Shown in pieces: positions 8,200 through 57,434 of a stretch of 64,000 bases of DNA. A program made the translations under genes and the position numbers. The notes below the pieces were generated by a model. It did not search any database. It was not told the DNA's origin and was given only the letters and a program-made list of their open reading frames with translations. Origin of the DNA: Flavobacterium sp. 1 (GTDB lineage: Bacteria > Bacteroidota > Bacteroidia > Flavobacteriales > Flavobacteriaceae); assembly GCF_002797935.1 (NCBI RefSeq), contig NZ_PGER01000001.1:3038001-3102000 (forward strand), read 5' to 3'. Within the stretch, counting starts at the first letter, position 1. Each line of letters opens with the position of its first letter.

Positions 8200-8392
8200 T
8201 TGATTCTTCTTAACTAATAAAAGATTATCCCAGATTACAAAGATTCCTTCTTTAATATTTTTAAAATCTATGCGAATCTATATAATTAGTGGCTAAAAAA
8301 ACTTGAGAAGTCCTATTTTGAAAATTAACACTTATTTGGCTTAATTGGTACGGTTTTTGTATTAAATTTAATTCAACATTAATCATATAAAG

Positions 8393-12153: not shown

Positions 12154-12629
12154 AATCAAAAGAATTAGAACAATTGATTTTTAATCCGTTTCATACAAGT
12201 AAAATTCTTCATCATTTTCTAACAGGTGTAGATGCAAATAATAAAAATGGAATTAAAACTGAACTTATTGGTATTGTTTTACCTATAATATATAACGATG
12301 TATTAGTAAATAATTCATTATCAACATTAAATGTAAAATCAAATTTTAAATCGTTAATATCAACATATGAATTTAAAGTATTCGCAACTCAAATAAACGA
12401 TGAGATTAAAAATTTCAAAAGTTTAACCAATAATTCCTTGATTATTTTAGCCAATACAAACGATATCATTATAAGTGATTTTATAAAAGTAAAAAACACA
12501 ATTGATTATCATCATGAAAAAGATATTAGCTTAAAGAAAATATATAAAGCTTCCTATAATTTGGGTAGTATTATGGCAAAAGAAAATTATTTATCAATAT
12601 TCCTAAAATTAAAAATAACTGAATTATGA
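12150..12629 (+). CDS. ABC-3C-type system, middle component
   Basis: A protein of about 159 residues starting at ATG 12150, which overlaps the previous stop as ATGA. A longer in-frame start at 12129 exists but is less likely given the coupling. It opens with MKSKELEQLIFNPFHTSKIL and has no recognised catalytic motif. Middle components of ABC-three-component systems are small helical proteins of this size set between the nuclease/effector and the ATPase. Its TGA again overlaps the next ATG. The call rests mainly on context. Confidence 0.7.
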   Translation: MKSKELEQLIFNPFHTSKILHHFLTGVDANNKNGIKTELIGIVLPIIYNDVLVNNSLSTLNVKSNFKSLISTYEFKVFATQINDEIKNFKSLTNNSLIILANTNDIIISDFIKVKNTIDYHHEKDISLKKIYKASYNLGSIMAKENYLSIFLKLKITEL

Positions 12630-15833: not shown

Positions 15834-16059
15834 TTATTAATTTTGTGTAATCGATTACAATGAATCAAAAATAGAAATTTTATTGAAACAAAAAATCATT
15901 TTAACATTAATGCTATCATTTTATCACTTTGTGCTAAATTGATGGTACAAACTAATGCTGTGAAAACGTATTTTTTATTTATCCTATTAGACACTTCTTC
16001 GTTAAAGACTGAATGTCTCGCAAATTGTTACTATAAATACGAGGTTATACCATTAGCCC
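15834..16059. other. Divergent intergenic region, pectate lyase side
   Basis: AT-rich DNA between the divergent pectate lyase and hydroxylase genes. A TGTAATCGATTACA palindrome (about 15845-15858) sits just upstream of the lyase gene and could be an operator. Nothing else was identified before the structured repeat at 16060. Confidence 0.4.
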
Positions 16060-16155
16060 TAGCCCAGATTGCTTCGCTCGTGTGCAGTGAAAATCCTTTT
16101 TGTGAAAAATCTATTTTTTACAAAAAGATTGAAACGAATAGCTGGAAATAGCTCC
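16060..16155 (+). ncRNA. Flavo-1-like structured repeat, copy 1
   Basis: Begins TAGCCCAGATT and ends ATAGCTGGAAATAGCTCC. CCCAG can pair with CTGG near the end, and CTTTTTGTGAAAAAT...ACAAAAAG forms the central hairpin. It shares the edge motifs of four other copies in the window. It ends just upstream of the hydroxylase promoter. Confidence 0.6.
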
Positions 16156-19213: not shown

Positions 19214-19284
19214 TTCATTCTATTATTTTAGCCAAATTAATTCTTTTTTTTAAAATGAAAGCAAAAAAGCTAAATATTGCCTCT

Positions 19285-19361
19285 TAGCCCCGATTGAAAT
19301 GGAAATCCTTATAAGCCGGGGTTCGGCTTATAAGATTGTAACGGAAAGCGGGACGATATTC
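19285..19361 (+). ncRNA. Flavo-1-like structured repeat, copy 2
   Basis: Begins TAGCCCCGATTGAAATGGAA and ends ACGGAAAGCGGGACG. The closing pair is CCCCG/CGGG here, where other copies have CCCAG/CTGG, a compensatory change. The central hairpin is ATAAGCCGGGG-TT-CGGCTTAT-like. It lies in a 216-base gap between DUF4230 and tamL. Confidence 0.65.
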
Positions 19362-36442: not shown

Positions 36443-36542
36443 CACAGCACAATAAAGGATAGAGTATTCTAATAGTCCTAAAAGCAAAAATGCTACAATC
36501 GAACTTAGAAAAAACCAATCTTTCTTATGAAAGACAATCCCC

Positions 36543-36620
36543 TAGCCCAGATGGAAACGGCATCCTTTTTCTTTTTCCTTTAAAAAGAAAAAGATATAGT
36601 GGACAGCTGGATAAAGCTCC
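36543..36620 (+). ncRNA. Flavo-1-like structured repeat, copy 4
   Basis: Begins TAGCCCAGATGGAAACGGCA and ends GTGGACAGCTGGATAAAGCTCC-like. The central CTTTTTCTTTTTCC...AAAAAGAAAAAG is a clear hairpin, and CCCAG/CTGG close the stem. It is the most compact copy, in the 330-base gap before the Rrf2 gene. Confidence 0.7.
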
Positions 36621-36772: not shown

Positions 36773-37186
36773 ATGCTTTCACATAAAACCAAATATGCTC
36801 TTAAAGCACTTCTTTATTTAGCACAACAGGATGAAAACCATATTTCAAGAACTATTGAAATTGCAGAAGGAGCCAATATTCCAAAAAAGTTTTTGGAGCA
36901 GATTCTTTTGGATTTAAAAAGAGGTCATTTTGTAGGGAGCAAACAAGGAAAATATGGCGGTTATTACCTTTTAAAAGACAAAGAAACGATCACTTTGGCC
37001 GATATTCACCGTCTTTTTGATGGTGCAATTGCATTATTACCTTGTGCATCATTAAATTTTTATGAGCGCTGTTCAGATTGTGCAGATGAAGCTGAATGCC
37101 ACCTGCGACACGGATTAATGACGATTCGGGACGAAACTTTGAAAGCCATGCAAGGCATCACAATAGCCTCATTAGTAAAAAAATAA
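36773..37186 (+). CDS. Rrf2 family transcriptional regulator
   Basis: 137 residues. The Rrf2 winged HTH occupies the first half (MLSHKTKYALKALLYLAQQ, then ANIPKKFLEQILLDLKRGHFV and the GKYGGYYL wing). The sensing part has four cysteines: Cys91, Cys100, Cys103 (CSDC) and Cys109 (ECHLRH), enough for an Fe-S cluster as in IscR or for thiol sensing. CymR, a known Rrf2 member, controls cysteine metabolism. It lies just upstream of the Cys-rich leader and transport genes and is the likely local regulator. Confidence 0.88.
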   Translation: MLSHKTKYALKALLYLAQQDENHISRTIEIAEGANIPKKFLEQILLDLKRGHFVGSKQGKYGGYYLLKDKETITLADIHRLFDGAIALLPCASLNFYERCSDCADEAECHLRHGLMTIRDETLKAMQGITIASLVKK

Positions 37187-37227
37187 AAAAATATTTTTAA
37201 AATTACACTAAATTGATAGAATTTATA

Positions 37228-37235
37228 TATTTTTG
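37228..37235 (+). promoter_or_regulatory. -7 box of the Cys-leader/TonB transcript
   Basis: TATTTTTG matches TAnnTTTG, 40 bases ahead of the leader ATG at 37275. The nearest upstream TTG is only 12 bases away, so no standard -33 is claimed. Confidence 0.5.
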
Positions 37236-37274
37236 CGTCAAGTTTAACATGTGACTAAATCAAAATTTAATAAA

Positions 37275-37385
37275 ATGCGAACGAATCAATCCAAAAACAA
37301 AGCTGTCAGGAAAAGCGGCAAAACACTAAATTTTCAAACTTTAGAAAATAACAGTATCAAAATGTGTTGTATGTGCATGTGCTAG
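37275..37385 (+). CDS. Cysteine-rich leader peptide, ends MCCMCMC
   Basis: A 36-codon ORF (ATG 37275, TAG 37383-37385) whose last seven residues are MCCMCMC. Four Cys codons sit just before the stop, an arrangement suited to ribosome stalling when charged tRNA-Cys is low. The preceding part is basic and of no recognisable domain. It lies 54 bases before the TonB receptor. No intrinsic terminator is visible between them, so attenuation would have to act by Rho or by translational coupling. Cysteine sensing is inferred from composition. Confidence 0.75.
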   Translation: MRTNQSKNKAVRKSGKTLNFQTLENNSIKMCCMCMC

Positions 37386-37439
37386 ATTATAAAAAAAATT
37401 TAATTTAAATTCTACCAATTACATATAACATACATAATA

Positions 37440-40010
37440 ATGAGAACTATATTCATAAAATCAATTTCAAGTTTACTGTTATTTTTCGTTTTTTCAGCTT
37501 CATGGGCTCAAAGCCAAATAACAGGAATCGTTACTGACAATCAAAAAAATCCATTGCCAGGTACTAATATCATCATAAAAGGCACTAAGCACAACGCTAT
37601 TTCAGATGCTAATGGAAAATTTAGCATTGACACTCACGAGAAACTTCCTTTTACCCTATTAATACAATACGTAGGCTATACTACAACAGAAATAAAAATC
37701 AACCAGCCAACGGATGCACCCTTAGAAATAAGTTTAATTCCTGAGAATGAAAATGTTTTAATTGAAGTAGTTGTTTCTTCCAGACGCCGTATAGAAAAAG
37801 CACAAGATATTCCTATCGCAGTATCTGTAGTTACTGGTAAACAAGCTGAACAAACAGGAGCTTTCAATGTGAACCGCATAAAAGAATTGGTACCATCTGT
37901 ACAGCTTTATTCTTCAAACCCAAGAAATACAGGGATTAACATTCGAGGTCTTGGATCACCATTCGGTCTAACCAATGACGGTATCGATCCAGGTGTTGGT
38001 TTTTATGTTGACGGTGTATATTATGCCCGTCCTGCAGCAACCACTCTAGATTTTATCGATGTAGAAAGAATTGAAGTATTACGCGGACCTCAAGGAACTT
38101 TGTTTGGTAAAAACACAACTTCAGGTGCTTTTAACATAACTTCCCGCAAACCAAGCTTCACCTCTGGTGCAGACTTCGAAGTGAGTTACGGTAACTATGC
38201 ATATCTTCAGGCTAAGGCTTCTGTTACTGGAGCTTTAAGTAAAAAAGTTGCTGGTAGATTGTCATTATCGGGTACTCAACGTGATGGTATTATCGATAAT
38301 ACTAGAACAGGAAAGCCAACAAACACTCTAAACAATCAAGGTATTAGAGGTCAATTGCTTTTTACTCCAACAGAAAACACAAACATTACGCTAGCAGGAG
38401 ATATCACAACACAGCATAATGATGGATATGCACAAGTAGTTGCTGGTGTTGCTCCAACAAATAGAGTTCCACAACGTCAATTTAACGCAATTATTGCTGA
38501 TTTAAACTACCAACTTCCAAGCTTAAATGCTTTCGATCGTAAAATTGACCATGACACCCCATGGCGTTCGGGACAGGATTTGGGCGGAGGATCACTTAAT
38601 GTGGACACGAAAATTGGAAAAGGAACATTAACCTCAACAACTGCATGGAGATTCTGGACTTGGGATCCGTCAAATGACAGAGATTTTACAGGATTGCAGG
38701 TACTTGCTAAATCGCAAAATCCTTCCAGACAAACTCAATTTACCCAAGAGGTACGTTACGCAGGTCAGATTACATCTAAAATAAGCGGTGTTGCTGGAGT
38801 GTTTTATATTGATCAGACATCAAAAACAAAAGGCACAGAGGAATCCGGTAACGCACAATGGAGATTTTCCCAAGACTCATTTACTCCAGCAAATACTGCA
38901 TTATGGAAAACCCCAGGTCTTTTTGAAGGATATGGAATAAAAACCAATGCTCAAATACATTCAACTAGTGCGGCGGTATTCGGTCAATTAGACTGGGCTG
39001 TAACAGATAAACTGCATGTATTACCAGGTTTAAGATACAACTACGACAAGAAAGATGCAGATTATGACCGTAAAACATACGGAGGTCTTCAAACTACTGA
39101 TCCTGCATTAATAGCGTTGAAAAAGAAAGTTTATACAGATCAAAACTTCTCATCAAATAATGATGATACTGACTTCTCTGGAAATATAACTGTATCATAC
39201 AAAGCATCAGATAAAATCAATGCTTATGGAACTTTTGCAAAAAGCTACAAACCTATTGGAGTGAATGTTGCAGGACTTCCTACTCCGCCTGCGGGACAAA
39301 CTTTAGGTGATCTTGCAACAGTTAAGCCAGAAGATGTTACTCATTATGAATTTGGGGTAAAAACTTCTCCAATTGCAAATTCTATTTTGAACTTAACATA
39401 CTTTAATACAGATATTAAAGATTTCCAAACCAATGTTCAGGCTGCTGAATTGGGCGTTAACCGAGGTTATCTTGCTAATGCTGATGAAGTGCGTGTACAA
39501 GGTGTGGAACTAGATGCCAGTTTTATTCTTAACAAACATTTCAACTTCTACGGAGCCGCAACTTATAGCGACGGTAAGCATGTTAAATTTACAAATGCTC
39601 CTCTTCCTCTTGAAGAAACTGGATCTGCAGTATCATTTAAAGATGTATCAGGTTCTGATTTACCCGGAGTTTCAAAATGGGCCGGAAGTTTAGGCGGTGA
39701 ATATACAAAAGACGCAAAATTCTTTGCTAATATAGGTAAATTCTTTATAGCTCTAGATGGTTATGCTCGCTCAGAATTCTCATCAAGCCCATCAGCTTCT
39801 ACTTATTTAGTAGTTCCTGGCTATGCAATTTTTAATGGCCGTTTAGGATTCCGCGCTTCCGAAGGATTATCTGTTCATTTTTGGGGACGTAACCTTTTAG
39901 ACAAAGATTATTATGAGCAATTATTGCCTGCTGGTGGAAATGCCGGACAATATGCTGGTGTAATAGGAGACCAAAGAACATACGGAATTACACTTCGTTA
40001 CGCTCTTTAA
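37440..40010 (+). CDS. TonB-dependent receptor of the Cys-leader locus
   Basis: 856 residues. Signal peptide (SSLLLFFVFSASWAQ), then a carboxypeptidase-like beta-sandwich (QITGIVTDNQKNPLPGTNIIIKG), a plug (ARPAATTLDFIDVERIEVLRGPQGTLFGK) and a 22-strand barrel to the C-terminal YGITLRYAL. There is no SusD partner, so this is not a SusCD glycan system but a FecA-like small-solute receptor. It is the first structural gene after the Cys-rich leader and probably delivers the importer's ligand across the outer membrane. Confidence 0.93.
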   Translation: MRTIFIKSISSLLLFFVFSASWAQSQITGIVTDNQKNPLPGTNIIIKGTKHNAISDANGKFSIDTHEKLPFTLLIQYVGYTTTEIKINQPTDAPLEISLIPENENVLIEVVVSSRRRIEKAQDIPIAVSVVTGKQAEQTGAFNVNRIKELVPSVQLYSSNPRNTGINIRGLGSPFGLTNDGIDPGVGFYVDGVYYARPAATTLDFIDVERIEVLRGPQGTLFGKNTTSGAFNITSRKPSFTSGADFEVSYGNYAYLQAKASVTGALSKKVAGRLSLSGTQRDGIIDNTRTGKPTNTLNNQGIRGQLLFTPTENTNITLAGDITTQHNDGYAQVVAGVAPTNRVPQRQFNAIIADLNYQLPSLNAFDRKIDHDTPWRSGQDLGGGSLNVDTKIGKGTLTSTTAWRFWTWDPSNDRDFTGLQVLAKSQNPSRQTQFTQEVRYAGQITSKISGVAGVFYIDQTSKTKGTEESGNAQWRFSQDSFTPANTALWKTPGLFEGYGIKTNAQIHSTSAAVFGQLDWAVTDKLHVLPGLRYNYDKKDADYDRKTYGGLQTTDPALIALKKKVYTDQNFSSNNDDTDFSGNITVSYKASDKINAYGTFAKSYKPIGVNVAGLPTPPAGQTLGDLATVKPEDVTHYEFGVKTSPIANSILNLTYFNTDIKDFQTNVQAAELGVNRGYLANADEVRVQGVELDASFILNKHFNFYGAATYSDGKHVKFTNAPLPLEETGSAVSFKDVSGSDLPGVSKWAGSLGGEYTKDAKFFANIGKFFIALDGYARSEFSSSPSASTYLVVPGYAIFNGRLGFRASEGLSVHFWGRNLLDKDYYEQLLPAGGNAGQYAGVIGDQRTYGITLRYAL

Positions 40011-40096
40011 ATTTAAAAAAAAGAAAAAAATTAGCGCATCTTATTATATGCTAACTTTTTACTGTAAGAATAAATTCATCCCATAAAAAAGACAAA

Positions 40097-41044
40097 ATGA
40101 AAGCATACAGAAAGACATTCGCACTCATAATTGCTTTATTAATAGCAAACATAGTTCCCAATAAAATTTCGGCTCAAGATTTATCAGGAAATATAAGCAT
40201 CTCAGGAGCATTTGCCTTATACCCTATTACAGTAAAATGGGCAGAAGAATTCAAAAAAGCACATCCAAATGTAAAAATAGACATTCAAGCTGGAGGTGCC
40301 GGAAAAGGAATTACAGATGTTTTGTCCAAAGTAACCGATATTGGACTGGTATCCAGAGAGCTTAATGCTGCTGAGAACAAAAAAGGTGCTTATGCAATTG
40401 CCGTTACCAAAGATGCTGTAATTCCAACCATAAGCGCAACGAGTCCTTATAAAGCCGTTTTATATAAAAAGGGTGTAAAAAAAGAAGCGTTCAATAACAT
40501 TTTCATTACTGGGAAATACAAAACATGGAATACCCTTGGTTTCAAAAGTGTGGCACCAATACATGTTTATACAAGATCCGATGCCGCTGGAGCTGCCGAA
40601 ACTTGGGCCAGCTATTTTGGTAAAAAACAGGAAGATTTACAAGGAGTTGCTGTGTTTGGCGACCCAGGACTGGCTCAAGCCGTACAAAGAGATCCTTCAG
40701 GATTAGGTTTTAATAATATCGTTTACATATATGATACCAAAACCAACAAACCTACCAATGGGATAGTTCCTGTTCCAATTGATTTAAACAATAACGGAAA
40801 ATTAGATGCCGATGAAAACTTTTACAATGACATTGACCAGTTGATTGCTGCTATTGTTTCTGGTAAATATCCATCGCCTCCAGCTCGAGATCTGTATTTT
40901 GTAACTTCTGGAAAACCAAAGAATGCTGCTGTAAAAGCTTTCATAAAATACATTCTTACAGATGGTCAAAAATTTGTTACGGAAGCTGGATATATTAAAC
41001 TTTCGAAAGAAAAACTGACGAAAGAAATAGGGAAAGTAAAATAA
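40097..41044 (+). CDS. PstS-like periplasmic binding protein with altered ligand loops
   Basis: 315 residues, signal peptide to about residue 26 (VPNKISAQ). Fold segments match PstS-type binding proteins (ITVKWAEEFKKAHPNVKIDIQAGG; TDIGLVSREL). The three phosphate loops differ: the first Ser/Thr loop is SGAFA (36-40), the second is AGGAGKG (65-71) where PstS has GGSGTG-like, and the third is RSDAAGAAETW (160-170) in place of RSDGSGT. The usual phosphate hydrogen-bonding Ser/Thr are largely Ala/Gly/Lys. The ligand is likely another oxyanion, such as sulfate. It is first of the importer genes. Confidence 0.85.
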   Translation: MKAYRKTFALIIALLIANIVPNKISAQDLSGNISISGAFALYPITVKWAEEFKKAHPNVKIDIQAGGAGKGITDVLSKVTDIGLVSRELNAAENKKGAYAIAVTKDAVIPTISATSPYKAVLYKKGVKKEAFNNIFITGKYKTWNTLGFKSVAPIHVYTRSDAAGAAETWASYFGKKQEDLQGVAVFGDPGLAQAVQRDPSGLGFNNIVYIYDTKTNKPTNGIVPVPIDLNNNGKLDADENFYNDIDQLIAAIVSGKYPSPPARDLYFVTSGKPKNAAVKAFIKYILTDGQKFVTEAGYIKLSKEKLTKEIGKVK

Positions 41045-41128
41045 CATTCTTCCAAATAAAACATCCACCCTATGCAGAAACTGAGACTATGAGGAGTTAC
41101 AGTTCTGCTGGGGTGGTTTATTACAATT

Positions 41129-42022
41129 ATGAAAAACATAAGATTACTCAAAGACCGCCTGATCAGTAAAACATTCCTCGCGTTGACTATCCTGTCGATT
41201 TCGACAGTGATATTGATTGGTTTTGGATTGTTCTACAAATCATTACCCATTTTAAACAGTACTTCACTTTATAATTTATTATTTTCCTCAGAATGGAAAC
41301 CTTTCAAAAAAGCCTTCGGGTTTTATCCTTTTATTGTCGGTACGCTTTGGGTAACTGCAATTGCCATTATAATTGCATTACCATTATCAATGTTAACCGC
41401 TATATATCTTTCGGAATATGCCCACATACGAGTACGAAAACTGGTTTTGCCTTTAATTGAATTATTATCCGGAATTCCGCCTGTGCTTTATGGAGTTTGG
41501 GGAGTATTGGTAATTATTCCTTTAATACAAGACCGAATAGCACCGCATTTTATTGAATTCACAACAGGTTATTCTGTACTGGCTGGAGGAATCGTTTTGG
41601 CAATCATGATTTTTCCTCTTATCATAAGCATTGTGATTGAAGTTTTTGACAATGTTCCGCAGGATTTACGGAATGCCTCTTTATCACTGGGAGCTACACA
41701 ATGGCAAACAACTAAAAAGGTTGTTCTTAGAAAGTCATTTGACGGAATTGTAGCCGCTGTTGTGCTTGCCATTTCCAGAGCGTTTGGAGAAACCATTGCT
41801 GTATTGATGGTTTGCGGTAACTTGGCACAAGTACCTCATAGTTTATTCGATTCAGCTTATCCGTTACCGGCACTTATTGCTAATAATTATGGAGAGATGA
41901 TGTCTATTCCTATGTATGATTCAGCATTGATGTTTGCCGCTCTGCTCCTATTCGTCATCATCTTTTTGTTCAATGCGCTGTCGAGAATTATTTTGTATCG
42001 AATCGAAAAAAGAAACACATAA
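41129..42022 (+). CDS. pstC: PstC-like ABC permease
   Basis: 297 residues with about six transmembrane helices. The membrane core has ELLSGIPPVLYGVWGVLVIIPL, and the EAA-loop equivalent is NASLSLGATQWQTTKKVVLRKSFDGI. GETIAVLMVCGN is typical of PstC. It is followed 11 bases later by the second permease. The family name is by homology; the substrate is doubtful (see the binding protein). Confidence 0.88.
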   Translation: MKNIRLLKDRLISKTFLALTILSISTVILIGFGLFYKSLPILNSTSLYNLLFSSEWKPFKKAFGFYPFIVGTLWVTAIAIIIALPLSMLTAIYLSEYAHIRVRKLVLPLIELLSGIPPVLYGVWGVLVIIPLIQDRIAPHFIEFTTGYSVLAGGIVLAIMIFPLIISIVIEVFDNVPQDLRNASLSLGATQWQTTKKVVLRKSFDGIVAAVVLAISRAFGETIAVLMVCGNLAQVPHSLFDSAYPLPALIANNYGEMMSIPMYDSALMFAALLLFVIIFLFNALSRIILYRIEKRNT

Positions 42023-42033
42023 ACACAATCAAA

Positions 42034-42873
42034 ATGAGAAAAACAGAAGAAAATATATTCAAAGTTTTGATGATACTGAGCACTGTTATCATCAGCAGTA
42101 CACTGTTTATGATAGTGTACACCATTTTTTCAAAAGGAATTGGATCTTTGAGCTGGGATATGGTTTCCAAAATTCCCGAAGGCGGTTTCTACATTGGAAA
42201 AGGCGGCGGGATTTTGAACGCAATAGTGGGTTCAATTTACATCACTATAGGCTCTACATTATTGGGATTGCTAATCAGTCTTCCAATTGTGATTTACATA
42301 AACGTTTATGCCAAAAGAAATGCCACATTGGCTACCGTTACGAGATTAAGTTATGACATTCTGTTTGGAATTCCATCGATTGTGTATGGCGCATTTGGAT
42401 TTGCCATTATGGTTTATATGGGACTAAAAACTTCGTTACTGGCAGGAATCATTACAGTAACCTTAATGATAATCCCAATACTGGTTAGAGCCATTGACGA
42501 AGTGGTTCGTGTAGTTCCCGAAGATATGTCTAATGCTGTTTTTGCGTTGGGAGGCACCCGATATGAATCTGCAAAAATCATATTGAGGCAATCCATTCCG
42601 GGAATTGTGACTGCCATACTGCTGTCTTTTGGAAGAGCTATTGGCGATGCTGCATGCGTGCTGTTTACAGCAGGCTTTACCGACAGCATCCCGACTTCAT
42701 TCGACCAGCCTGCAGCTACTTTGCCTCTGTCCATATTTTTTCAATTGAGCAGTCCAATTAAAGAAGTTCAAAATAGAGCTTACGCCGCTGCAGTTATCCT
42801 TACTATTATCGTTTTAGTCATCAACATTGTGGCAAAAATAGCCAGCAAAAATCTTTCAAAAAACAAAATATGA
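42034..42873 (+). CDS. pstA: PstA-like ABC permease
   Basis: 279 residues, six predicted membrane helices. It contains LSYDILFGIPSIVYGAFGFAI and the EAA-like AVFALGGTRYESAKIILRQSIPGIV, with RAIGDAACVLFTAGFTDS near the end of the core. Its TGA overlaps the next gene's ATG (ATGA at 42870), so the ATPase is translationally coupled. Confidence 0.88.
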   Translation: MRKTEENIFKVLMILSTVIISSTLFMIVYTIFSKGIGSLSWDMVSKIPEGGFYIGKGGGILNAIVGSIYITIGSTLLGLLISLPIVIYINVYAKRNATLATVTRLSYDILFGIPSIVYGAFGFAIMVYMGLKTSLLAGIITVTLMIIPILVRAIDEVVRVVPEDMSNAVFALGGTRYESAKIILRQSIPGIVTAILLSFGRAIGDAACVLFTAGFTDSIPTSFDQPAATLPLSIFFQLSSPIKEVQNRAYAAAVILTIIVLVINIVAKIASKNLSKNKI

Positions 42874-43631
42874 TCATTCAGCCACACATAAGTATCCAAA
42901 ATTTAAATGTTCACATTGGTGAAAACCATATTCTAAAGAACATCAATCTTGACATTCCCGACAAGAAAGTGACCTCATTAATTGGTCCGTCGGGCTGCGG
43001 AAAAACAACCCTGCTTAAAACTATGAACCGATTACTAGACCGTCAAAACGATGTTCGCGTGGACGGTAAAGTTTTGGTAGATGGCGAAAACATTTACGAT
43101 CCAAAAGTTGAAGTCACACATATCCGAAAAAAAATGGGTCTGCTTTCGCAAAGACCTTTCCCTTTACCAATGAATATTTATGACAATATTGCTTACGGAC
43201 AACGCATTCACGGAAATAACCGCAAAAAAGAGTTGGACGAAATAGTCGAAAAATACCTTCGCGGCGTGAACCTTTGGGACGAAGTAAAAGACCGATTGAA
43301 ATCGCCTGCTACCCGACTATCGATTGGGCAGCAACAACGATTGTGCTTAGCGAGAGGGCTGGCAATTGAACCGGAAATCATCTTGGGAGACGAACCTACA
43401 TCGGCACTGGATCCTATTTCGACTCAAGCCATTGAGGAATTATTTATGGAATTAAAAGATAAATACACGATTGTTTTGGTTACACACATTTTGCGTCAAG
43501 CTCGAAGAGTCTCCGATTATATTGGTTTTGTTTACATGGGAGAAATCATAGAATTTGGTCCTACCGAAGAAGTGCTTTTGAACCCAAAAGAAAAACTGAC
43601 GCAAGATTATGTAAAAGGCTTTTTGGTTTAG
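42870..43631 (+). CDS. pstB: PstB-like ABC ATPase
   Basis: 253 residues. Walker A is GPSGCGKT (39-46), the Q-loop is LLSQRPFPLP, and Walker B is ILGDEPTSALD (Asp174-Glu175). The ABC signature reads LSIGQQQR (150-157), with Ile where PstB and most ABC proteins have Gly (LSGGQ). It energises the two permeases upstream. No phoU follows, unlike the standard Pst operon. Confidence 0.9.
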   Translation: MIIQPHISIQNLNVHIGENHILKNINLDIPDKKVTSLIGPSGCGKTTLLKTMNRLLDRQNDVRVDGKVLVDGENIYDPKVEVTHIRKKMGLLSQRPFPLPMNIYDNIAYGQRIHGNNRKKELDEIVEKYLRGVNLWDEVKDRLKSPATRLSIGQQQRLCLARGLAIEPEIILGDEPTSALDPISTQAIEELFMELKDKYTIVLVTHILRQARRVSDYIGFVYMGEIIEFGPTEEVLLNPKEKLTQDYVKGFLV

Positions 43632-43670
43632 CGATAAAAAATAAATTCTATATAAGTTATAGAGTTTATG

Positions 43671-43678
43671 TACATTTG
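43671..43678 (+). promoter_or_regulatory. Possible internal -7 box before DUF2490
   Basis: TACATTTG matches TAnnTTTG, 21 bases before the ATG at 43699, so the downstream two genes might also be transcribed separately. Confidence 0.4.
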
Positions 43679-43698
43679 CCGAAAATTTAAACTGCCTT

Positions 43699-44454
43699 AT
43701 GAAAACCATCAGAATCTTATGTCTTTTGCTAGTGTGCTTTGTTTCCAAAGCTCAAACAGAAAAAAATATAGATCATCAAAGTTTACTTTGGACACGCTAT
43801 TACAACCAATTGACCTTAAACAGCAAATGGTCTATACATACTGAATTTGACAATCGGGTTTTTATAAGTCCTTCTGAGGAAAATTTATTTCTGATACGAA
43901 TGCACGGACGATATAAAATCAATGAAAAAATTGACTTGGGTGCCGGAGTTTCATATTTTTCTGTAGCCACCCAAGTTCCTGAAAATACTAATGATTTTAG
44001 GACGCCGGAATACAGGATACAACAGGATATCTCTTGTAAACAGGAATTTGGAAGTTTCACCTTAAATCATCGGTTTCAGGCAGAGGAACGATTTATACAC
44101 AACGCTAATAAAGAGGAGTTACTTTCGGGAACAACTTTCTATTGGAGATTCAGATACCGCCTTCAAGGGGAATATTCCTGTTGGAAAAAGGAAAAACAAT
44201 ACCTGAAAGCTATCGTTTATGATGAATTGATGATTAACGCAGGTGAAAAAATTGTTTATAACACTTTTGACCAAAACAGAATTTACGCCGCTTTACAATA
44301 CGGTATCAATAAAAATATTGCATTAGAATTGGGCTACTTAAACAGTTTCCAGCAACGTGCGAACGGTATTGATTATTTTGACAGAGATATTATCAGGTTT
44401 ACCTTTTTTCATAAAATAAAACTAAAAGAAAAACACAAAGAGCTGTCTAATTAA
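43699..44454 (+). CDS. DUF2490 outer-membrane protein
   Basis: 251 residues. Signal peptide RILCLLLVCFVSKAQ, then a DUF2490 beta-barrel pattern (WTRYYNQLTLNSKWSIHTEFDNRVF, then KIDLGAGVSYFSV, FRYRLQGEYS and the NIALELGYLNSFQQRANG end). It is probably a small outer-membrane barrel. It lies between the importer and the ChrA-type gene. Confidence 0.8.
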   Translation: MKTIRILCLLLVCFVSKAQTEKNIDHQSLLWTRYYNQLTLNSKWSIHTEFDNRVFISPSEENLFLIRMHGRYKINEKIDLGAGVSYFSVATQVPENTNDFRTPEYRIQQDISCKQEFGSFTLNHRFQAEERFIHNANKEELLSGTTFYWRFRYRLQGEYSCWKKEKQYLKAIVYDELMINAGEKIVYNTFDQNRIYAALQYGINKNIALELGYLNSFQQRANGIDYFDRDIIRFTFFHKIKLKEKHKELSN

Positions 44455-44522
44455 GCTGACCTGTTCCGTTTTTTATTAGTTTCTTTTATGAAAAAAAGCA
44501 TCATTTTTTAACTAGAAACAAA

Positions 44523-45698
44523 ATGAATATAAATACAGAAAAGGAAAATTATACATTACTTGATTTAGTAAAATATTTTCTCAAACTTGGCACAATAGGC
44601 TTTGGCGGTCCTGTAGCATTAGTTGGTTATATGCACCGCGATTTAGTTGAGAACAAAAAATGGATTAACGATTCCGATTTTAAAGAAGGATTGGCGTTGT
44701 CTCAATTAGCACCTGGTCCTTTAGCCGCACAGTTAGGAATTTATATTGGATTTGTACACTTTGGTATTTTAGGAGCCACATTATCAGGTTTAGCATTTGT
44801 ACTTCCTTCCTTTTTAATGGTCATTTCGTTAGGTATTGCCTATCAGGCTTATGGTGGCCTGCCATGGATGCAAGCTATTTTTTATGGAATAAGTGCCGCC
44901 GTTATTGGCATAATTGCTTTGAGTTCCTATAAACTTACTGCCAAATCGATCAGTAAATTTGAAATTCCAGCCATAAAAAGCAATTGGTTACTTTGGATAT
45001 TTTACATCTCAGCGACCATTCTTACTGCTGTAACACAACAAGAAGAATTGTTACTGTTTGTTGCTTTAGGTTTCATTTATATGATTGTAAAAGCACCGCC
45101 AGAATGGATCAAACGCCCTAAAACAGCTTCCTTCTTTTTACTTACTACGGCTAGTTTCACAACTATTGACCTTGGAAAATTAGGAGATCTTGCTTGGTTT
45201 TTTATCAAAGCCGGGGCTTTTGTTTTTGGAAGCGGTCTAGCCATTGTACCCTTTTTACATACAGGAGTTGTCAATGAACACCATTGGCTAACCGAAAATC
45301 AATTTGTAGATGCTGTAGCTGTAGCCATGATTACTCCTGGTCCTGTAGTAATTACTGTAGGTTTCATTGGTTATTTAGTAGCTGGATTTACTGGAGCAAC
45401 TGTGGCTGCGCTAGGAGTTTTTCTTCCCTGCTATTTATTTACTGTTATTCCTGCTCCTTATTTCAAAAAGATTTCCCAGAACAAAAGTATCAAAGCGTTT
45501 GTGGATGGAATAACTGCAGGTGTAATTGGAGCTTTGGTCGGTGCTGTAATCGTAATTGCCTTGCGGACTATTATTGATATTCCCACAGCAATGATTGCTA
45601 TAGGTACTGCTTTAGTATTAATTTATTCGAAAAAACTACAGGAACCTCATATTATTGTTATTGCAGCGGTTTTAGGAGTTTTACTCAAACTGTTATAA
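44523..45698 (+). CDS. chrA: ChrA-type chromate/oxyanion transporter
   Basis: 391 residues with two tandem CHR domains and about ten membrane helices. The signature LGTIGFGGPVALVGYMHRDL opens the first domain, with LALSQLAPGPLAAQLGIYIG close after. The second has AGAFVFGSGLAIVPFLHTGVV and AMITPGPVVITVGFIGYLVAG. Known members export chromate, and the fold handles sulfate-like anions. Its place next to a Cys-leader-controlled importer suggests sulfate-related transport or protection, by inference. Confidence 0.9.
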   Translation: MNINTEKENYTLLDLVKYFLKLGTIGFGGPVALVGYMHRDLVENKKWINDSDFKEGLALSQLAPGPLAAQLGIYIGFVHFGILGATLSGLAFVLPSFLMVISLGIAYQAYGGLPWMQAIFYGISAAVIGIIALSSYKLTAKSISKFEIPAIKSNWLLWIFYISATILTAVTQQEELLLFVALGFIYMIVKAPPEWIKRPKTASFFLLTTASFTTIDLGKLGDLAWFFIKAGAFVFGSGLAIVPFLHTGVVNEHHWLTENQFVDAVAVAMITPGPVVITVGFIGYLVAGFTGATVAALGVFLPCYLFTVIPAPYFKKISQNKSIKAFVDGITAGVIGALVGAVIVIALRTIIDIPTAMIAIGTALVLIYSKKLQEPHIIVIAAVLGVLLKLL

Positions 45699-53283: not shown

Positions 53284-53356
53284 CGCGGGATAGAGCAGTA
53301 GGCAGCTCGTCGGGCTCATAACCCGAAGGTCACAGGTTCGAGTCCTGTTCCCGCTA
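53284..53356 (+). tRNA. Initiator tRNA-fMet (CAT), copy 1
   Basis: 73 nt without encoded CCA. CGCGGGA and TCCCGCT form the acceptor with an unpaired C1-T72. The anticodon stem TCGGG/CCCGA contains the three G-C pairs typical of initiators around CTCATAA, and the T-arm is ACAGG-TTCGAGT-CCTGT. The missing 1-72 pair and GGG/CCC stem mark an initiator rather than an elongator. Confidence 0.93.
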
Positions 53357-53391
53357 CTAAGGTAGCCTTATTGAGATTACAAAACGCACAT

Positions 53392-53464
53392 CGCGGGATA
53401 GAGCAGTAGGCAGCTCGTCGGGCTCATAACCCGAAGGTCACAGGTTCGAGTCCTGTTCCCGCTA
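53392..53464 (+). tRNA. Initiator tRNA-fMet (CAT), copy 2
   Basis: Identical to copy 1 over all 73 nt, 35 bases downstream, and probably on the same transcript. Its 3' end plus terminator is duplicated at 57568-57611. Confidence 0.93.
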
Positions 53465-53587
53465 CTAAGAAAAAAAGCTTCAGAGAAATCTGGAGCTTTT
53501 TTCGTTTATATGGATTTACAAAACAATGCCTGATTCAGATTGCGTGTGCGAAGGTGACATTCGCACAGCTTTTCATAAGAACACTTC
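53456..53587. repeat. Left copy of the tRNA-3'-end/terminator repeat
   Basis: TTCCCGCTACTA at 53456-53467 (end of tRNA-fMet copy 2), the terminator at 53475-53502, and ACATTCGC/AGAACACTTC at 53557 and 53578. The same elements in the same order occur at 57568-57798 on the far side of the helicase gene, an arrangement like attL/attR. Confidence 0.65.
53473..53502 (+). terminator. Terminator of the tRNA-fMet pair
   Basis: AAGCTTCAGA and TCTGGAGCTT pair (one T-G) around a 4-base GAAA loop, followed by T6. It lies just after the second tRNA. Confidence 0.85.
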
Positions 53588-53771
53588 GAAGAGATTGATT
53601 ACCTTCAAAACTCGCTCCTAGTTGGACAACTATCAATTTTTTTATTAATACGATTAATATATATTTGCTTAGGATAAAACAAGCATTTCATATCTGAGGA
53701 ATCGAACATACTTGCTTAAATATTTTATCCATACAAAAACAACTGCTTTTTTAAAACATTATCAATACAAT

Positions 53772-56700
53772 ATGAGGATATACACAGAGCGATTATCACA
53801 AATAATTAAAGATAAAAACCATTGGTCTGACTTAAAAATTGAATTATCTAAATATAATATTGATAATAGAGATGAAAAACTAAAAGACACTTCAGCAGGG
53901 AAAATTTTTGAAGTTTTTGCAAAATACTACTTTCTAACTGCGCCAGAATTTGATGGCCTTTATACAGATATATGGTTATATCACGAAATACCATTAAAAA
54001 CAAAAGAAGCTTTAGATTTAGGAACTGTTGAGTATGGCATTGATTTATTATTAAAAACTATTAATAACAAGTATGTAGCCGTACAATGCAAATTTAAGAA
54101 CGATGAAACTAGCAGATTAAACTGGTCTGCTGATAAAATTGCTAACTTATTTGCTTATTGCCCAAAAGCGGATAGTTATATTTTATTTTCAAATTGTGCT
54201 TCACTAGACAACGTGTCATCATCTAGAACAAACAATTTCACATTTTACAATATTGGCCATTTATTAGAAATTGAACAAAATACGTTTGAGAACATTTTAA
54301 TAAAATTGAATGATAGCAAACCAAAAGACAAAGTCTATCTTCTTCCAAAACCCCATCAACAAAAGGCAATTGATGAATGCGTGCAATGGTTTACGGAAGG
54401 AGAGGAGTCAAGAGGACAACTGATATTACCTTGTGGAGCAGGCAAAACACTTACTTCATTATGGATTAAGGAAGAGCTAAAAAGTCAAAAAACTCTAATA
54501 TTAGTACCTTCTCTTGCATTATTAAGGCAAATCAAAAATGAATGGTCAAAACAGAGAAAAACAATATATGAATATTTATGTGTTTGTTCAGAAACTGATA
54601 TTGATGGAGATAATCAAGATTCAATTCTTACTCACACATATGAAATTGGTGGTAATGTAACTACAAATCCAGAAGACATAAATCTTTTTTTGAGTCTTGG
54701 TTTAGGAGAAAAAGTGATTTTTTCCACATATCAATCATTACCTGTAATTGTTGAATCACTGAAAAATACTGAAATAAATTTTGACTTTGTTTTTTGCGAT
54801 GAGGCACATAAAACCGCAGGAATAAGTAAAGGTGTTTTTGGCATAATCCATGATAATACTAAAATACCTGCTAAGAAGCGACTGTATGCAACCGCAACTC
54901 CTAGAATAGTAAAAGAGTCTTTAAAAAAGAAATTGGGAGATGATTTGAAATACACTCACGATATGAATGACCCAAAAACATTTGGAGAAGAGTTCTTTCG
55001 TATGTCTTTCAAAGATGCAATTGACCAAGATATACTTGTTGACTATAAAATTATTGCAATTGGAGTGAATGACAAGCAATTATCTAGTTATTTAAACGAA
55101 AGAAGATACGTTAACAACAATATTTCAATAGATGAGGTAGCAAATAATTATGCACTTGATTTTGTAATGTCGAAATACTCGGCCAATCATGCTTTGACTT
55201 TTCATTCTAGAGTAAATCTAGCCAAAGACTTTTCATTAAGACACTCAAAGCTTTTTGAAACAACAAATTCATTTTCAGTAGATGGAACTCAAGCTACGAG
55301 TATAAGAAATCAAATTTTACATGAATTTAAGAGCTCTAATAAAGCGATAATTTCAAATGCCAGATGTCTGACGGAAGGTGTTGATGTACCTACTATTGAT
55401 TTAGTATATTTCTCCGACCCAAAAAACTCAAAAGTTGATATAATTCAAGCTGTTGGACGAGCTTTGAGAAAAAAAGAAGGAAAGAAACAAGGCTATATTG
55501 TTGTTCCAATTTATCATACAAATCATGGTGAAGTTGAAAATTCAATCAGTGAAGGCTCTTTTAAAAATTTATTACAAGTAATCCGTTCATTGTGTGAACA
55601 AGATGAACGGCTACAAGACGAAATAAACTCAATTGCTTTTGGTAAAGGAAAAAAAGGTTCAAAAAGAATAGACATTCTTTCTTCTTTTGACGAAGAAATT
55701 GAAACTTTAAATCTTATCGGATTTGAACAAAATTTGAGAGAATCTTTATTTGACCAAATAATTTATAAAACTTCAAATAATTGGGATATTTGGTTTTTAG
55801 AATTAAAAACTCATTTAGAATTAAATAATGATTATCCTTCTAAAAATGAAAATGCCAATTTATATGCATGGGTGGCACAACAGCGAAATAGAAAAAACAG
55901 CAATACCTTAAAATTGGAAGAACTTAGAAAGCTAAATTCAATAAATTTTGCGTGGGATATAGTAAGATGGAAATGGTATAAAATGTTTGAAGTTTTTAAA
56001 TCTTATGCGGAAGTCAACGAATTTTCACCCCATAAAGACTTTGATAATCCTGATTTAGTAAATTGGTATAAGATTCAACTTGGGTATTTAAATGATAAAA
56101 AATATATAACTAACGAACAACTAATAAAATTCCAAAATATAAATTCTAAATTTTTAGGTTCAGGAAGCAAAAAAAAGTGGGTTGCTTTATATGAAGATTT
56201 GGTTAAATGGAGAAGTATAAATTCAGATAGATGGCCACAATATCAAAGAGATGATAAAGATTCCTATGAGAGTAAACTTAGTGTTTTCTGTCAAACAATT
56301 AGAAAACGATTTAGAGAAAATGATTTAGAAGATTATTGGTACGACAAATTTACCGAACTCGGATTTAACTTTGAAGGAAAAGCTGACACCTGGACCGATT
56401 ATTTTTTTAAAATAAAAAACCTTCTTCAAACTCGTACTTCAATTTCCATTGATGATATTGGTCAAAATGAATATACTTGGATATATCGTCATAGAAAAGA
56501 TTTTAGTGAAGGAAAATTAACAGAATATCAATGTCAAAAAATAAAAGAACTATCTCTTGATAGATTTTTTGAAACTTGGGAGCAGAGTTTTGAGAAAATA
56601 AAAAAATGGCAAATAGAGAATCTAAAATTACCAACAAGAAACAGTAATAAAGATTTACATAGTTGGCTTAATTCTCAAAGGTCGAAATATAAAAATGGGA

Positions 56701-57434
56701 CTCTGTCAGAAGAACAAATTATAAGTCTTCAATCAATTGGATATTATTTAGAAGGAAAGGGTAATCAAGATAAAGAGGACAGATGGTTAGAAATGTTTAA
56801 TAATCTAGTAGATTTCAAAAAAAAGAATTCAAATGATTGGCCAAAATTTGGGTCAGATGGTTTAGAAGCTCAATTATACAATTGGTGTCAAGCTAACAGA
56901 CAAGCACAAGCTGGCACTCATTCGGGAGGCAGAAGAAAAGAATTGGAGCAATGGAAAGTAATCAAACTTGATGAACTTAATTTTCATTGGGCAAAGGCTG
57001 ATATAAACAACAGAGATTGGGAAATCAACTTTGAAAAATTCATTGAACATCTTGATTCGGATGGAAATTTTACGCTTCCTTCTATGGTTAATGGAGAAAT
57101 AAACCTACTATATCGATGGTTTACTAATCAGCGAGTCTCTTTCCAAAAAAACAAAATGCCTAGTGATAGAATCCAAAAGTTTAAAGAGGTAGGGGTTTCA
57201 TTTGAAGAATCTGAGAATTTAACTAAAAGAGATGGTTATTCAAAATGGGCTAAAAACATAAATAAAATAGCTAAATTCATTGAGACAAATGGACACTATC
57301 CAAAAGCAGGGACAGACACATTACAAGCGAATTTATATCAATCTTTAGCAAGAACGAAACGAGCTTTTAATGAAACCAAACTATCCGAAGAACAAATTGC
57401 ATTACTAAGAGAACTAAATATAAAGATTGATTAA
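53772..57434 (+). CDS. Mrr-like nuclease plus SF2 helicase with about eight HA repeats
   Basis: About 1220 residues from ATG 53772 (an upstream ATG at 53712 is possible). The N-terminus has a PD-(D/E)XK site: GID (Asp91) and QCK (105-107). Then an SF2 helicase: Walker A PCGAGKT (Lys225), DEAH (343-346), YATATPRI, and motif VI QAVGRALRKK from residue 559. From about residue 660 to the end, about eight W-rich helicase-associated units follow, each near NLYAWVAQQRNR, DLHSWLNSQRSK or LYNWCQANRQAQ. It is likely an anti-phage or genome-defence enzyme acting on DNA. Flanked by a duplicated tRNA end; no integrase or methylase is nearby. Confidence 0.85.
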   Translation: MRIYTERLSQIIKDKNHWSDLKIELSKYNIDNRDEKLKDTSAGKIFEVFAKYYFLTAPEFDGLYTDIWLYHEIPLKTKEALDLGTVEYGIDLLLKTINNKYVAVQCKFKNDETSRLNWSADKIANLFAYCPKADSYILFSNCASLDNVSSSRTNNFTFYNIGHLLEIEQNTFENILIKLNDSKPKDKVYLLPKPHQQKAIDECVQWFTEGEESRGQLILPCGAGKTLTSLWIKEELKSQKTLILVPSLALLRQIKNEWSKQRKTIYEYLCVCSETDIDGDNQDSILTHTYEIGGNVTTNPEDINLFLSLGLGEKVIFSTYQSLPVIVESLKNTEINFDFVFCDEAHKTAGISKGVFGIIHDNTKIPAKKRLYATATPRIVKESLKKKLGDDLKYTHDMNDPKTFGEEFFRMSFKDAIDQDILVDYKIIAIGVNDKQLSSYLNERRYVNNNISIDEVANNYALDFVMSKYSANHALTFHSRVNLAKDFSLRHSKLFETTNSFSVDGTQATSIRNQILHEFKSSNKAIISNARCLTEGVDVPTIDLVYFSDPKNSKVDIIQAVGRALRKKEGKKQGYIVVPIYHTNHGEVENSISEGSFKNLLQVIRSLCEQDERLQDEINSIAFGKGKKGSKRIDILSSFDEEIETLNLIGFEQNLRESLFDQIIYKTSNNWDIWFLELKTHLELNNDYPSKNENANLYAWVAQQRNRKNSNTLKLEELRKLNSINFAWDIVRWKWYKMFEVFKSYAEVNEFSPHKDFDNPDLVNWYKIQLGYLNDKKYITNEQLIKFQNINSKFLGSGSKKKWVALYEDLVKWRSINSDRWPQYQRDDKDSYESKLSVFCQTIRKRFRENDLEDYWYDKFTELGFNFEGKADTWTDYFFKIKNLLQTRTSISIDDIGQNEYTWIYRHRKDFSEGKLTEYQCQKIKELSLDRFFETWEQSFEKIKKWQIENLKLPTRNSNKDLHSWLNSQRSKYKNGTLSEEQIISLQSIGYYLEGKGNQDKEDRWLEMFNNLVDFKKKNSNDWPKFGSDGLEAQLYNWCQANRQAQAGTHSGGRRKELEQWKVIKLDELNFHWAKADINNRDWEINFEKFIEHLDSDGNFTLPSMVNGEINLLYRWFTNQRVSFQKNKMPSDRIQKFKEVGVSFEESENLTKRDGYSKWAKNINKIAKFIETNGHYPKAGTDTLQANLYQSLARTKRAFNETKLSEEQIALLRELNIKID

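What the first reader, a model, noticed from the sequence alone, without database searches (positions are those of the whole stretch)
36773..45698. Candidate cysteine-regulated oxyanion (sulfate-like) uptake locus
An Rrf2 regulator with four cysteines, a leader peptide ending MCCMCMC, a TonB receptor with no SusD, a PstSCAB-like importer, a DUF2490 outer-membrane protein and a ChrA-type transporter are consecutive on one strand. No phoU is present. The leader and the Rrf2 family point to cysteine/sulfur control rather than phosphate, and ChrA handles sulfate analogues. The combination, with a TonB receptor dedicated to an inorganic-anion-type ABC importer, is not one I know as a described system.
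Basis: partly seen in the sequence, partly recalled or inferred. Interest (0 to 1): 0.78.

Follow-up and report, generated by a model that had tools for sequence, protein, structure and literature searches.

The report
Cysteine-controlled sulfate uptake operon, mislabelled phosphate
A bacterium of the Flavobacterium kind carries a gene block whose importer is labelled a phosphate transporter but most likely brings in sulfate, and a tiny cysteine-rich peptide at its front appears to switch it on when cysteine runs short; if so, the label of a protein family found across its phylum needs correcting.

Summary
In detail: Rrf2 regulator, 36-codon leader ending MCCMCMC, TonB receptor, PstSCAB-like importer, DUF2490 and ChrA lie in one direction at 36773-45698. 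The sulfur reading rests on five lines. (1) 18 of 88 related importer loci carry sulfur-assimilation genes in the stretch read, 11 of them cysH/D/N or sulfite reductase; none carries phoU. (2) Four Ser/Thr positions of PstS aligned at the anion site are Ala in every readable member. (3) The genome has a separate PstSCAB-PhoU operon and a cys cluster without transporter. (4) Among 96 TonB-type Flavobacterium genomes a TauE/SafE gene is found in 0 of 7 with the importer and 70 of 89 without. (5) Cys-tailed leaders precede the outer-membrane gene in 19 of 79 loci versus 0 of 353 control genes, and in 30 of 30 TonB-type loci read; two tandem Met/Cys leaders with terminators precede metY in the same genome. 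Substrate, Rrf2 signal and leader mechanism are inferred, not measured.

The parts
36773..37186 (+). Rrf2-family regulator, 137 aa, four conserved Cys (PCASLNFYERCSDCADEAEC)
   Evidence: PF02082 116.8 bits; Cys kept in 39 of 39 Rrf2; a paralogue heads the own cys cluster
37205..37223 (+). operator-like site ACACTAAATTGATAGAATT (inverted repeat of TTCTA-N9-TAGAA type in relatives)
   Evidence: ATAGAATT columns at 90% or more in 30 aligned loci; the consensus pattern has 2 mismatches here and 1 at its best genome match, upstream of metY
37228..37235 (+). TATTTTTG, fits the Bacteroidota -7 consensus TAnnTTTG (consensus recalled, not from a call)
   Evidence: similar sequence at this place in most of 30 aligned loci
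37275..37385 (+). leader peptide ORF, 36 aa, ends MCCMCMC
   Evidence: same-position leaders in 30 of 30 TonB-type loci read
37362..37382 (+). run of seven Met/Cys codons, proposed regulatory codons and 5' arm of an RNA helix
37410..37434 (+). conserved segment TTCTACCAATTACATATAACATACA, proposed 3' arm that hides the TonB-receptor start; possibly a second operator
   Evidence: strongly conserved in relatives; pairs with the Cys codons in 32 of 33 folds
37440..40010 (+). TonB-dependent receptor with CarboxypepD_reg domain, no SusD partner
   Evidence: PF00593, PF07715, PF13715
40097..41044 (+). substrate-binding protein, PstS-like (PF12849), Ala at four aligned Ser/Thr ligand positions
41129..42022 (+). 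PstC-like permease
   Evidence: TIGR02138 275 bits, over cut-off
42034..42873 (+). PstA-like permease
   Evidence: TIGR00974 201 bits, over cut-off
42870..43631 (+). PstB-like ATPase
   Evidence: TIGR00972 347 bits, just over cut-off
43699..44454 (+). DUF2490 protein, predicted membrane beta-barrel
   Evidence: PF10677; 11 strands, mean pLDDT 79; the 50 PDB matches listed are mainly membrane beta-barrels, with low TM-scores
44523..45698 (+). ChrA/CHR-family transporter
   Evidence: TIGR00937 393 bits

Best explanation
The block is a sulfur-starvation operon. Outer-membrane entry is by the TonB receptor and the DUF2490 barrel; the PstS-like protein binds sulfate (or a close sulfur oxyanion) in a site that has lost most Ser/Thr phosphate ligands; PstC/A/B-like subunits pump it in; the ChrA-type protein is an accessory anion transporter. 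Control is double: an Rrf2 regulator at a site by the promoter, and a leader peptide whose Met/Cys codon run stalls ribosomes when charged Cys-tRNA is short. In the TonB-type loci the codon run can pair with the segment just before the receptor start; a stalled ribosome would break that pairing and free the start (translational attenuation). Shown: gene content, context, residue swaps, leader conservation, pairing potential. Inferred: substrate, stalling, Rrf2 binding and its signal, roles of ChrA, DUF2490 and the receptor.
For: Importer with cysH/cysD/cysN/sulfite reductase in 11 of 88 loci, any of 14 marker sequences (11 kinds of sulfur gene) in 18 of 88, in at least five arrangements; phoU 0 of 88. 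Ala at four columns that are Ser/Thr in the own-genome PstS and in 4gd5: 86 of 86, 86 of 86, 89 of 89, 89 of 89 readable sequences (only these two PstS were compared). Own genome has a Pst-PhoU operon elsewhere and a cys cluster without transporter (PhoU by eye). TauE/SafE gene: 0 of 7 importer-bearing versus 70 of 89 importer-less TonB-type genomes, p 5.5e-5. Leader with 3 or more Cys in its last 7 residues: 19 of 79 loci, 0 of 353 control genes, 2 of 1580 mononucleotide shuffles; Cys-tailed leader (2 or more Cys in last 8) in 30 of 30 TonB-type loci read. Codon run pairs with the receptor upstream segment (6 or more pairs) in 32 of 33, mean z -2.56; blocking it raises start-region accessibility 0.32 to 0.73. 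Same genome: two tandem Met/Cys leaders, each followed by a terminator hairpin with T run, before metY, with the best operator match 436 bases upstream of its start.
Against: 70 of 88 loci show none of the markers in the stretch fetched, some being short contigs. Genus-wide (299 genomes) avoidance of importer and TauE/SafE is only p 0.027-0.049 and no test is corrected for kinship; G561 has both, and Mucilaginibacter loci carry the importer with a siroheme-synthase/TauE fusion. A fifth Ser column of PstS (164) is still Ser in 15 of 89 (Cys in 24). 25 of 79 loci have no ORF with Cys in its tail, and porin-type Flavobacterium leaders have one or two Cys, ending MCPRA. 7 of 33 folds have z above -1.5, L026 has no cross pairs. 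The 3' arm resembles the upstream operator. The operator pattern is loose: 155 matches at 3 mismatches versus 100 reversed; six further 2-mismatch sites, four inside genes. The binding-protein model was poor (pLDDT 63). PhoR-like kinases match in 5 and a PhoB-like regulator in 1 of 88 loci (large paralogous families).
Confidence: 0.77

Rival explanations
1. The importer is a second phosphate (Pst) system, as annotated.
For: PstC, PstA and PstB models score over cut-off; the named solved relatives are mostly phosphate-binding proteins; most database names shown say phosphate; Porin_O_P is named phosphate-selective.
Against: PstS models miss cut-off by far; four Ser/Thr ligand columns are Ala throughout; no phoU in 88 loci, sulfur genes in 18; a Pst-PhoU operon exists elsewhere in the genome.
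Confidence: 0.05
2. The importer takes another sulfur compound or oxyanion (thiosulfate, sulfite, sulfonate, sulfate ester, molybdate), with the same cysteine control.
For: Context shows sulfur, not the exact ion; a TonB receptor is odd for small sulfate; the ChrA family is named for chromate.
Against: Operons shared with cysD/cysN, the sulfate-activating step, favour sulfate. Genes for use of sulfonates or sulfate esters were not searched for, so this is not excluded.
Confidence: 0.13
3. The Cys-rich tail senses a metal such as copper, as in Cys-motif leaders before TonB receptors of other bacteria (recalled), rather than Cys-tRNA.
For: Leader stands before a TonB receptor; Cys motifs can bind metals.
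Against: Tails vary from MCCMCMC to CCCCCCC and mix in Met, sulfur genes are found in some of these operons, and metY in the same genome has Met/Cys leaders with terminators.
Confidence: 0.06
4. The conserved segment before the TonB-receptor start is a second Rrf2 operator, and the leader acts otherwise or not at all.
For: L127 shows the same 14 bases AAACTCTACTAATT upstream and downstream.
Against: The part that departs from the operator is largely the part complementary to the Cys codons; leader conserved in 30 of 30 loci read.
Confidence: 0.2

Closest known systems
PstSCAB phosphate importer (TIGR02138, TIGR00974, TIGR00972, TIGR02136)
   Same: Subunit make-up and sequence family; PstC/A/B-like parts score over the curated cut-offs
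   Different: Binding protein below cut-off with Ala at four ligand columns, no PhoU found nearby, sulfur-gene context in 18 of 88, cysteine-type leader
SulT sulfate ABC importer (Sbp/CysP-CysUWA)
   Same: Proposed job: ABC import of sulfate for assimilation
   Different: Different branch: CysT, CysW and sulfate-permease models 33-53 bits against cut-offs of 240-329
CysP of the PiT family (B. subtilis)
   Same: A phosphate-transporter family turned to sulfate with loss of conserved residues (PMC5840216, passages read)
   Different: PiT is a one-protein symporter; here it is an ABC system
TauE/SafE (TSUP) sulfate uptake transporter (PMC11535334, passages read)
   Same: Candidate sulfate importer; a TauE-family gene sits in the cys cluster of 10 of 15 importer-less Flavobacterium genomes read
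   Different: Unrelated single protein
Mycobacterial Cys-tailed uORFs before sulfur genes (PMC4633059, passages read)
   Same: Short upstream ORF with a Cys cluster at its C-terminus, before cysA2 and other genes
   Different: Other phylum, leaderless mRNAs; here Met and Cys mixed, a 5' UTR, start-site pairing or terminators
Leader-peptide attenuation in Flavobacterium psychrophilum (PMC9723704, passages read)
   Same: Attenuation clues before amino-acid biosynthesis operons in a flavobacterium
   Different: The passages seen name no Cys leader and no sulfur uptake locus

Membership tests
PstSCAB phosphate importer | PstS-type binding protein with Ser/Thr phosphate ligands | tested here: not met
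   Ala at the columns of S38, S40, S68, T166 in all readable members; column 164 Ala/Cys/Ser; TIGR02136 116 bits of 206.6, TIGR00975 70 of 205. That these columns are ligands is recalled
PstSCAB phosphate importer | PstC, PstA, PstB family permeases and ATPase | tested here: met
   over cut-off for all three
PstSCAB phosphate importer | phoU / phosphate-regulon neighbours | tested here: not met
   0 of 88 loci with phoU, one BLAST reference; PhoU-like gene by eye at the other operon of this genome
SulT sulfate ABC importer | CysT/CysW/Sbp family membership | tested here: not met
   CysT and CysW hits far below cut-off; no Sbp model among the hits of the binding protein
Sulfate importer (function) | genomic linkage to sulfate assimilation | tested here: met
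   11 of 88 loci with cysH/D/N or sulfite reductase; the window's own locus is not linked
Sulfate importer (function) | binds and transports sulfate | not testable with these tools
   needs protein or growth assays
Cysteine attenuator leader | short ORF with regulatory Cys codons at its end, conserved upstream of the operon | tested here: met
Cysteine attenuator leader | alternative RNA structure controlled by stalling | tested here: inconclusive
   pairing in 32 of 33, but the 3' arm is nearly invariant and operator-like; no T-run terminator here, unlike metY
CymR-type cysteine regulator | NCBIfam CymR equivalog score | tested here: not met
   54 bits of 195
SusCD nutrient importer | SusD partner next to the TonB receptor | tested here: not met
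   no SusD gene in the block

The most novel reading that the evidence does not exclude
A sulfate ABC importer family that arose inside the Pst phosphate family of Bacteroidota by replacing at least four of five aligned Ser/Thr anion-site residues with Ala, standing beside SulT, SulP, CysP, DASS and TSUP/CysZ; it uses exchangeable outer-membrane gates (Porin_O_P, alginate-export-like barrel, DUF2490 or a TonB receptor) and is switched on by cysteine-starvation leaders that act on translation at this locus and on transcription at metY. A TonB receptor for a sulfur source and DUF2490 as an anion porin would both be new roles as far as I know.
Probability: 0.55. Interest if true: 0.8.

Novelty: new variant of a known kind. 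Interest (0 to 1): 0.68.

Why it matters
Of the 120 best matches to the binding protein that were listed, most of those with a name are called phosphate (PstS) proteins. If this clade moves sulfate, some phosphate-uptake inferences from Bacteroidota genomes are wrong and a missing step of their sulfate assimilation is filled. It would be a second example, beside CysP in PiT, of a phosphate family turned to sulfate with loss of conserved residues. It also offers test cases of cysteine-sensing leaders in Bacteroidota, where translation starts without strong Shine-Dalgarno sites (recalled).

Tried and rejected
Phosphate reading: rejected as main reading for the reasons given under rivals. Riboswitch: Rfam gave only sub-threshold hits at window 37150-37500 and around the own cys leader; the whole window gave three Flavo-1 RNAs and two tRNAs. 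SulP as the sulfate importer of this genome: two SulP genes exist, one beside a carbonic-anhydrase-like gene by eye, no cys genes seen by eye in the 14 kb read around each; role left open. Covariation proof of the leader helix: alignment A1 of 15 of 34 segments was made, but the 3' arm is nearly invariant, so no pair count was run. The structure model of the binding protein was too poor to use. The DUF2490 fold search supports a membrane barrel only (three hits at E 0.001 or less, TM-scores low). Literature: ten searches; in the listings shown I saw no paper on a PstSCAB-like sulfate importer or a Cys leader in Bacteroidota; several lists were cut and the library lacks most subscription journals, so absence is weak.

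Sampling limits: loci L016-L095 are the best 80 of 118. Duplicates are in the 88: L106 and L023 share contig length 51050, L108 and L080 share 319676, L064 and L074 have equal leaders; L148 and L017 share 431804. Counts were not thinned. My note says the cys-cluster element is in 20 of 20; recounted by eye it is in 19 of 20 plus the own genome.
Full report
What is there. The window lies in a 5.35 Mb single-contig genome; its nearest named relatives are Flavobacterium. The block 36773-45698 holds, all on +, an Rrf2 regulator, a leader ORF, a TonB receptor, a PstS-PstC-PstA-PstB-like importer, a DUF2490 protein and a ChrA-type transporter. The permeases and ATPase score over the Pst cut-offs, the binding protein far below (TIGR02136 116 of 206.6 bits).

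Not the phosphate system. The same genome has a separate operon with a response regulator, a kinase-like protein, a porin-like protein, PstS, PstC, PstA, PstB and a PhoU-like protein (L101; named by eye, PstS also by PF12849). Its PstS keeps Ser/Thr at four columns where the block's protein and its relatives (88 sequences plus the window) have Ala: columns 38 and 40 (86 of 86 readable, 3 gaps) and 68 and 166 (89 of 89); at a fifth, 164, the relatives have Ala 50, Cys 24, Ser 15. Only this PstS and 4gd5 were compared, and that these columns are phosphate ligands is recalled knowledge of PstS.

Sulfur neighbourhood. The best 80 of 118 related loci in named records plus 8 from a draw of 296 genomes of the same phylum, of which 9, the own one included, had the protein at E 1e-30, were annotated by script. 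phoU: 0 of 88, with one BLAST reference. cysH, cysD, cysN or sulfite reductase: 11 of 88. Any of 14 marker sequences (11 kinds of sulfur gene): 18 of 88, on the importer's strand except in L113, where the cys operon is divergent. Arrangements differ: cysD-H-N after the ATPase (L039, L051), cysH-D-N after it (L058, L060), sulfite reductase to cysN before the porin (L054, L066), to cysH only (L076, L077, L082), L040 and L113. Example proteins were checked with Pfam. A cys cluster of some 7 kb in a 4-5 Mb genome would fall within 10 kb of a random gene in under 1% of cases (my estimate, not a call), so about one of 88 is expected. The other 70 loci show none, some being short contigs.

Outer-membrane slot. 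The gene before the binding protein is Porin_O_P-like in 55 of 88, alginate-export-like in 12, TonB receptor in 7, DUF2490 in 3, with 11 at edges or unassigned (by BLAST to references typed). DUF2490 models as an 11-strand protein (mean pLDDT 79) and its listed PDB matches are mainly membrane barrels, at low TM-scores. So DUF2490, TonB receptor and porins look like exchangeable gates.

History in Flavobacterium. The first 200 residues of the TonB receptor match in 96 of 299 genus genomes. In 30 of 30 loci read (the top 30 of 96, own included) a 137-aa Rrf2 and a Cys-tailed leader precede it. In 20 genomes that I chose and read further, 5 have the importer, 7 ChrA and 17 DUF2490 at the site; the 15 without the importer gave no match at E 1e-30, and 13 of them have DUF2490. 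The receptor is thus not dedicated to the importer. Porin-type Flavobacterium loci show the same two GTPase genes downstream (by eye).

Another candidate sulfate transporter is missing where the importer is present. The cys cluster of the 21 genomes runs, with small variations, Rrf2-cysH-cysD-cysN-sulfite reductase-cobA. A 300-aa TauE/SafE protein lies before cysH in 10 of 15 importer-less genomes and in 0 of 6 with the importer, own included. Genus-wide, of 299: 17 importer-bearing, 80 with this protein at 70% identity or more, 1 with both, p 0.049; at the looser cut 92, p 0.027; within the 96 TonB-type genomes 0 of 7 versus 70 of 89, p 5.5e-5. These tests ignore kinship. A second TauE/SafE gene (260 aa) lies beside the cluster in some genomes, importer-bearing G546 among them. 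A TauE-family sulfate importer has been shown by complementation elsewhere (PMC11535334, passages). Nineteen TonB-type genomes have neither importer nor the 300-aa protein; of the five whose receptor locus I read, G385 and G441 carry ChrA there, while G429, G469 and G491 do not, and G429 has the 260-aa gene. So ChrA as an importer is a hint only.

Leader. An ORF of 10-60 codons with 3 or more Cys in its last 7 residues lies within 320 bases upstream of the first outer-membrane gene in 19 of 79 loci with full upstream sequence, 0 of 353 control genes in the same loci, and 2 of 1580 mononucleotide shuffles (Fisher p 1.4e-15 against the control genes; duplicates kept). With 2 or more Cys it is 36 of 79 against 11 of 353. 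Mucilaginibacter tails are mostly CCC-type, up to CCCCCCC; TonB-type tails are MCCMCMC, MMCMCW and the like. In porin-type Flavobacterium the ORF ends MCPRA with one or two Cys, coded inside a small hairpin, which I cannot explain fully. In 25 of 79 loci no ORF has Cys in its tail.

Leader mechanism. For 33 of 34 TonB-type segments (one not parsed) the codon run was folded with the region up to the receptor start: 6 or more pairs join it to the last 50 bases in 32 of 33, mean z -2.56, z below -1.5 in 26. In the window, blocking 37362-37400 as a stalled ribosome would raises the mean unpaired probability of 37412-37443 from 0.32 to 0.73. I see no T-run terminator before the receptor. This fits translational attenuation, but the 3' arm is nearly invariant, so covariation cannot prove it, and it resembles the operator upstream.

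Regulon link. An operator-like site lies at the promoter in the 30 aligned loci. Its consensus, searched in the own genome, has its best match (1 mismatch; the own site has 2) between a metK-like gene and an O-acetylhomoserine-sulfhydrylase-like gene (PF01053; metK and metY by eye). The pattern is loose: six further 2-mismatch sites, four inside genes, and 155 matches at 3 mismatches against 100 reversed. Between that site and metY lie two tandem ORFs, MKLLIKDMCCNMWKISAES and MKAIGNKMMICCMMCMCIPICYCQK, each followed by a terminator hairpin with T run (-11.7 and -17.5 kcal/mol) and each ending in a copy of the terminator's 3' arm, an attenuator layout; the alternative pairing forms in the fold for the first and only by letters for the second. 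The own cys cluster has its own Rrf2 and an element with a similar CTASTAA half, seen in 19 of 20 relatives by eye. Two of the three MCMC-coding sites in the genome are these leaders.

Judgement. Sulfur/cysteine control of the locus is very likely; sulfate as the importer's ligand is likely; the Rrf2 signal and the roles of ChrA, DUF2490 and the TonB receptor are inference. PMC5840216 speaks of five major sulfate-transporter families and the passages that I saw name no Pst-type one. My searches showed no description of this system, within an open-access library only.

Noticed in passing
window 11038-14575: Three-gene low-GC cassette: LmuA-like, LmuC/MC3 and LmuB/DUF3732 ATPase, i.e. a Lamassu / ABC-three-component type defence system.
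   Followed up: partly
window 53712-57434: 1240-aa restriction-type helicase with Helicase-associated domains and an Mrr-like domain, just after two tRNA-Met genes at 53284-53465; a candidate tRNA-side insertion.
   Followed up: partly
window 36540-36617, 19282-19359, 16057-16152: Three Flavo-1 RNAs; the first lies just upstream of the Rrf2 gene.
   Followed up: no
L186 1593-1937 (own genome about 4702733-4703077): Two tandem Met/Cys leader peptides with terminators before metY, and a SAM-II riboswitch hit on the other strand on the metK side.
   Followed up: partly
L100 about 8200-8240, and L166-L185: Conserved element of the form AATCTACTAAnCCGATAGGGTAATRGATTT between Rrf2 and the next gene of the cys cluster, 19 of 20 relatives by eye; no Rfam family reached threshold.
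   Followed up: partly
L019-L031, upstream of the porin: Leader ORFs of porin-type Flavobacterium end MCPRA, coded inside a TGTGCCCNNGGGCATA hairpin whose loop bases vary.
   Followed up: partly
L049, L087: A peroxiredoxin-like gene sits between the binding-protein and PstC-like genes (by eye); L050 and L078 have an ORF of similar size there.
   Followed up: no
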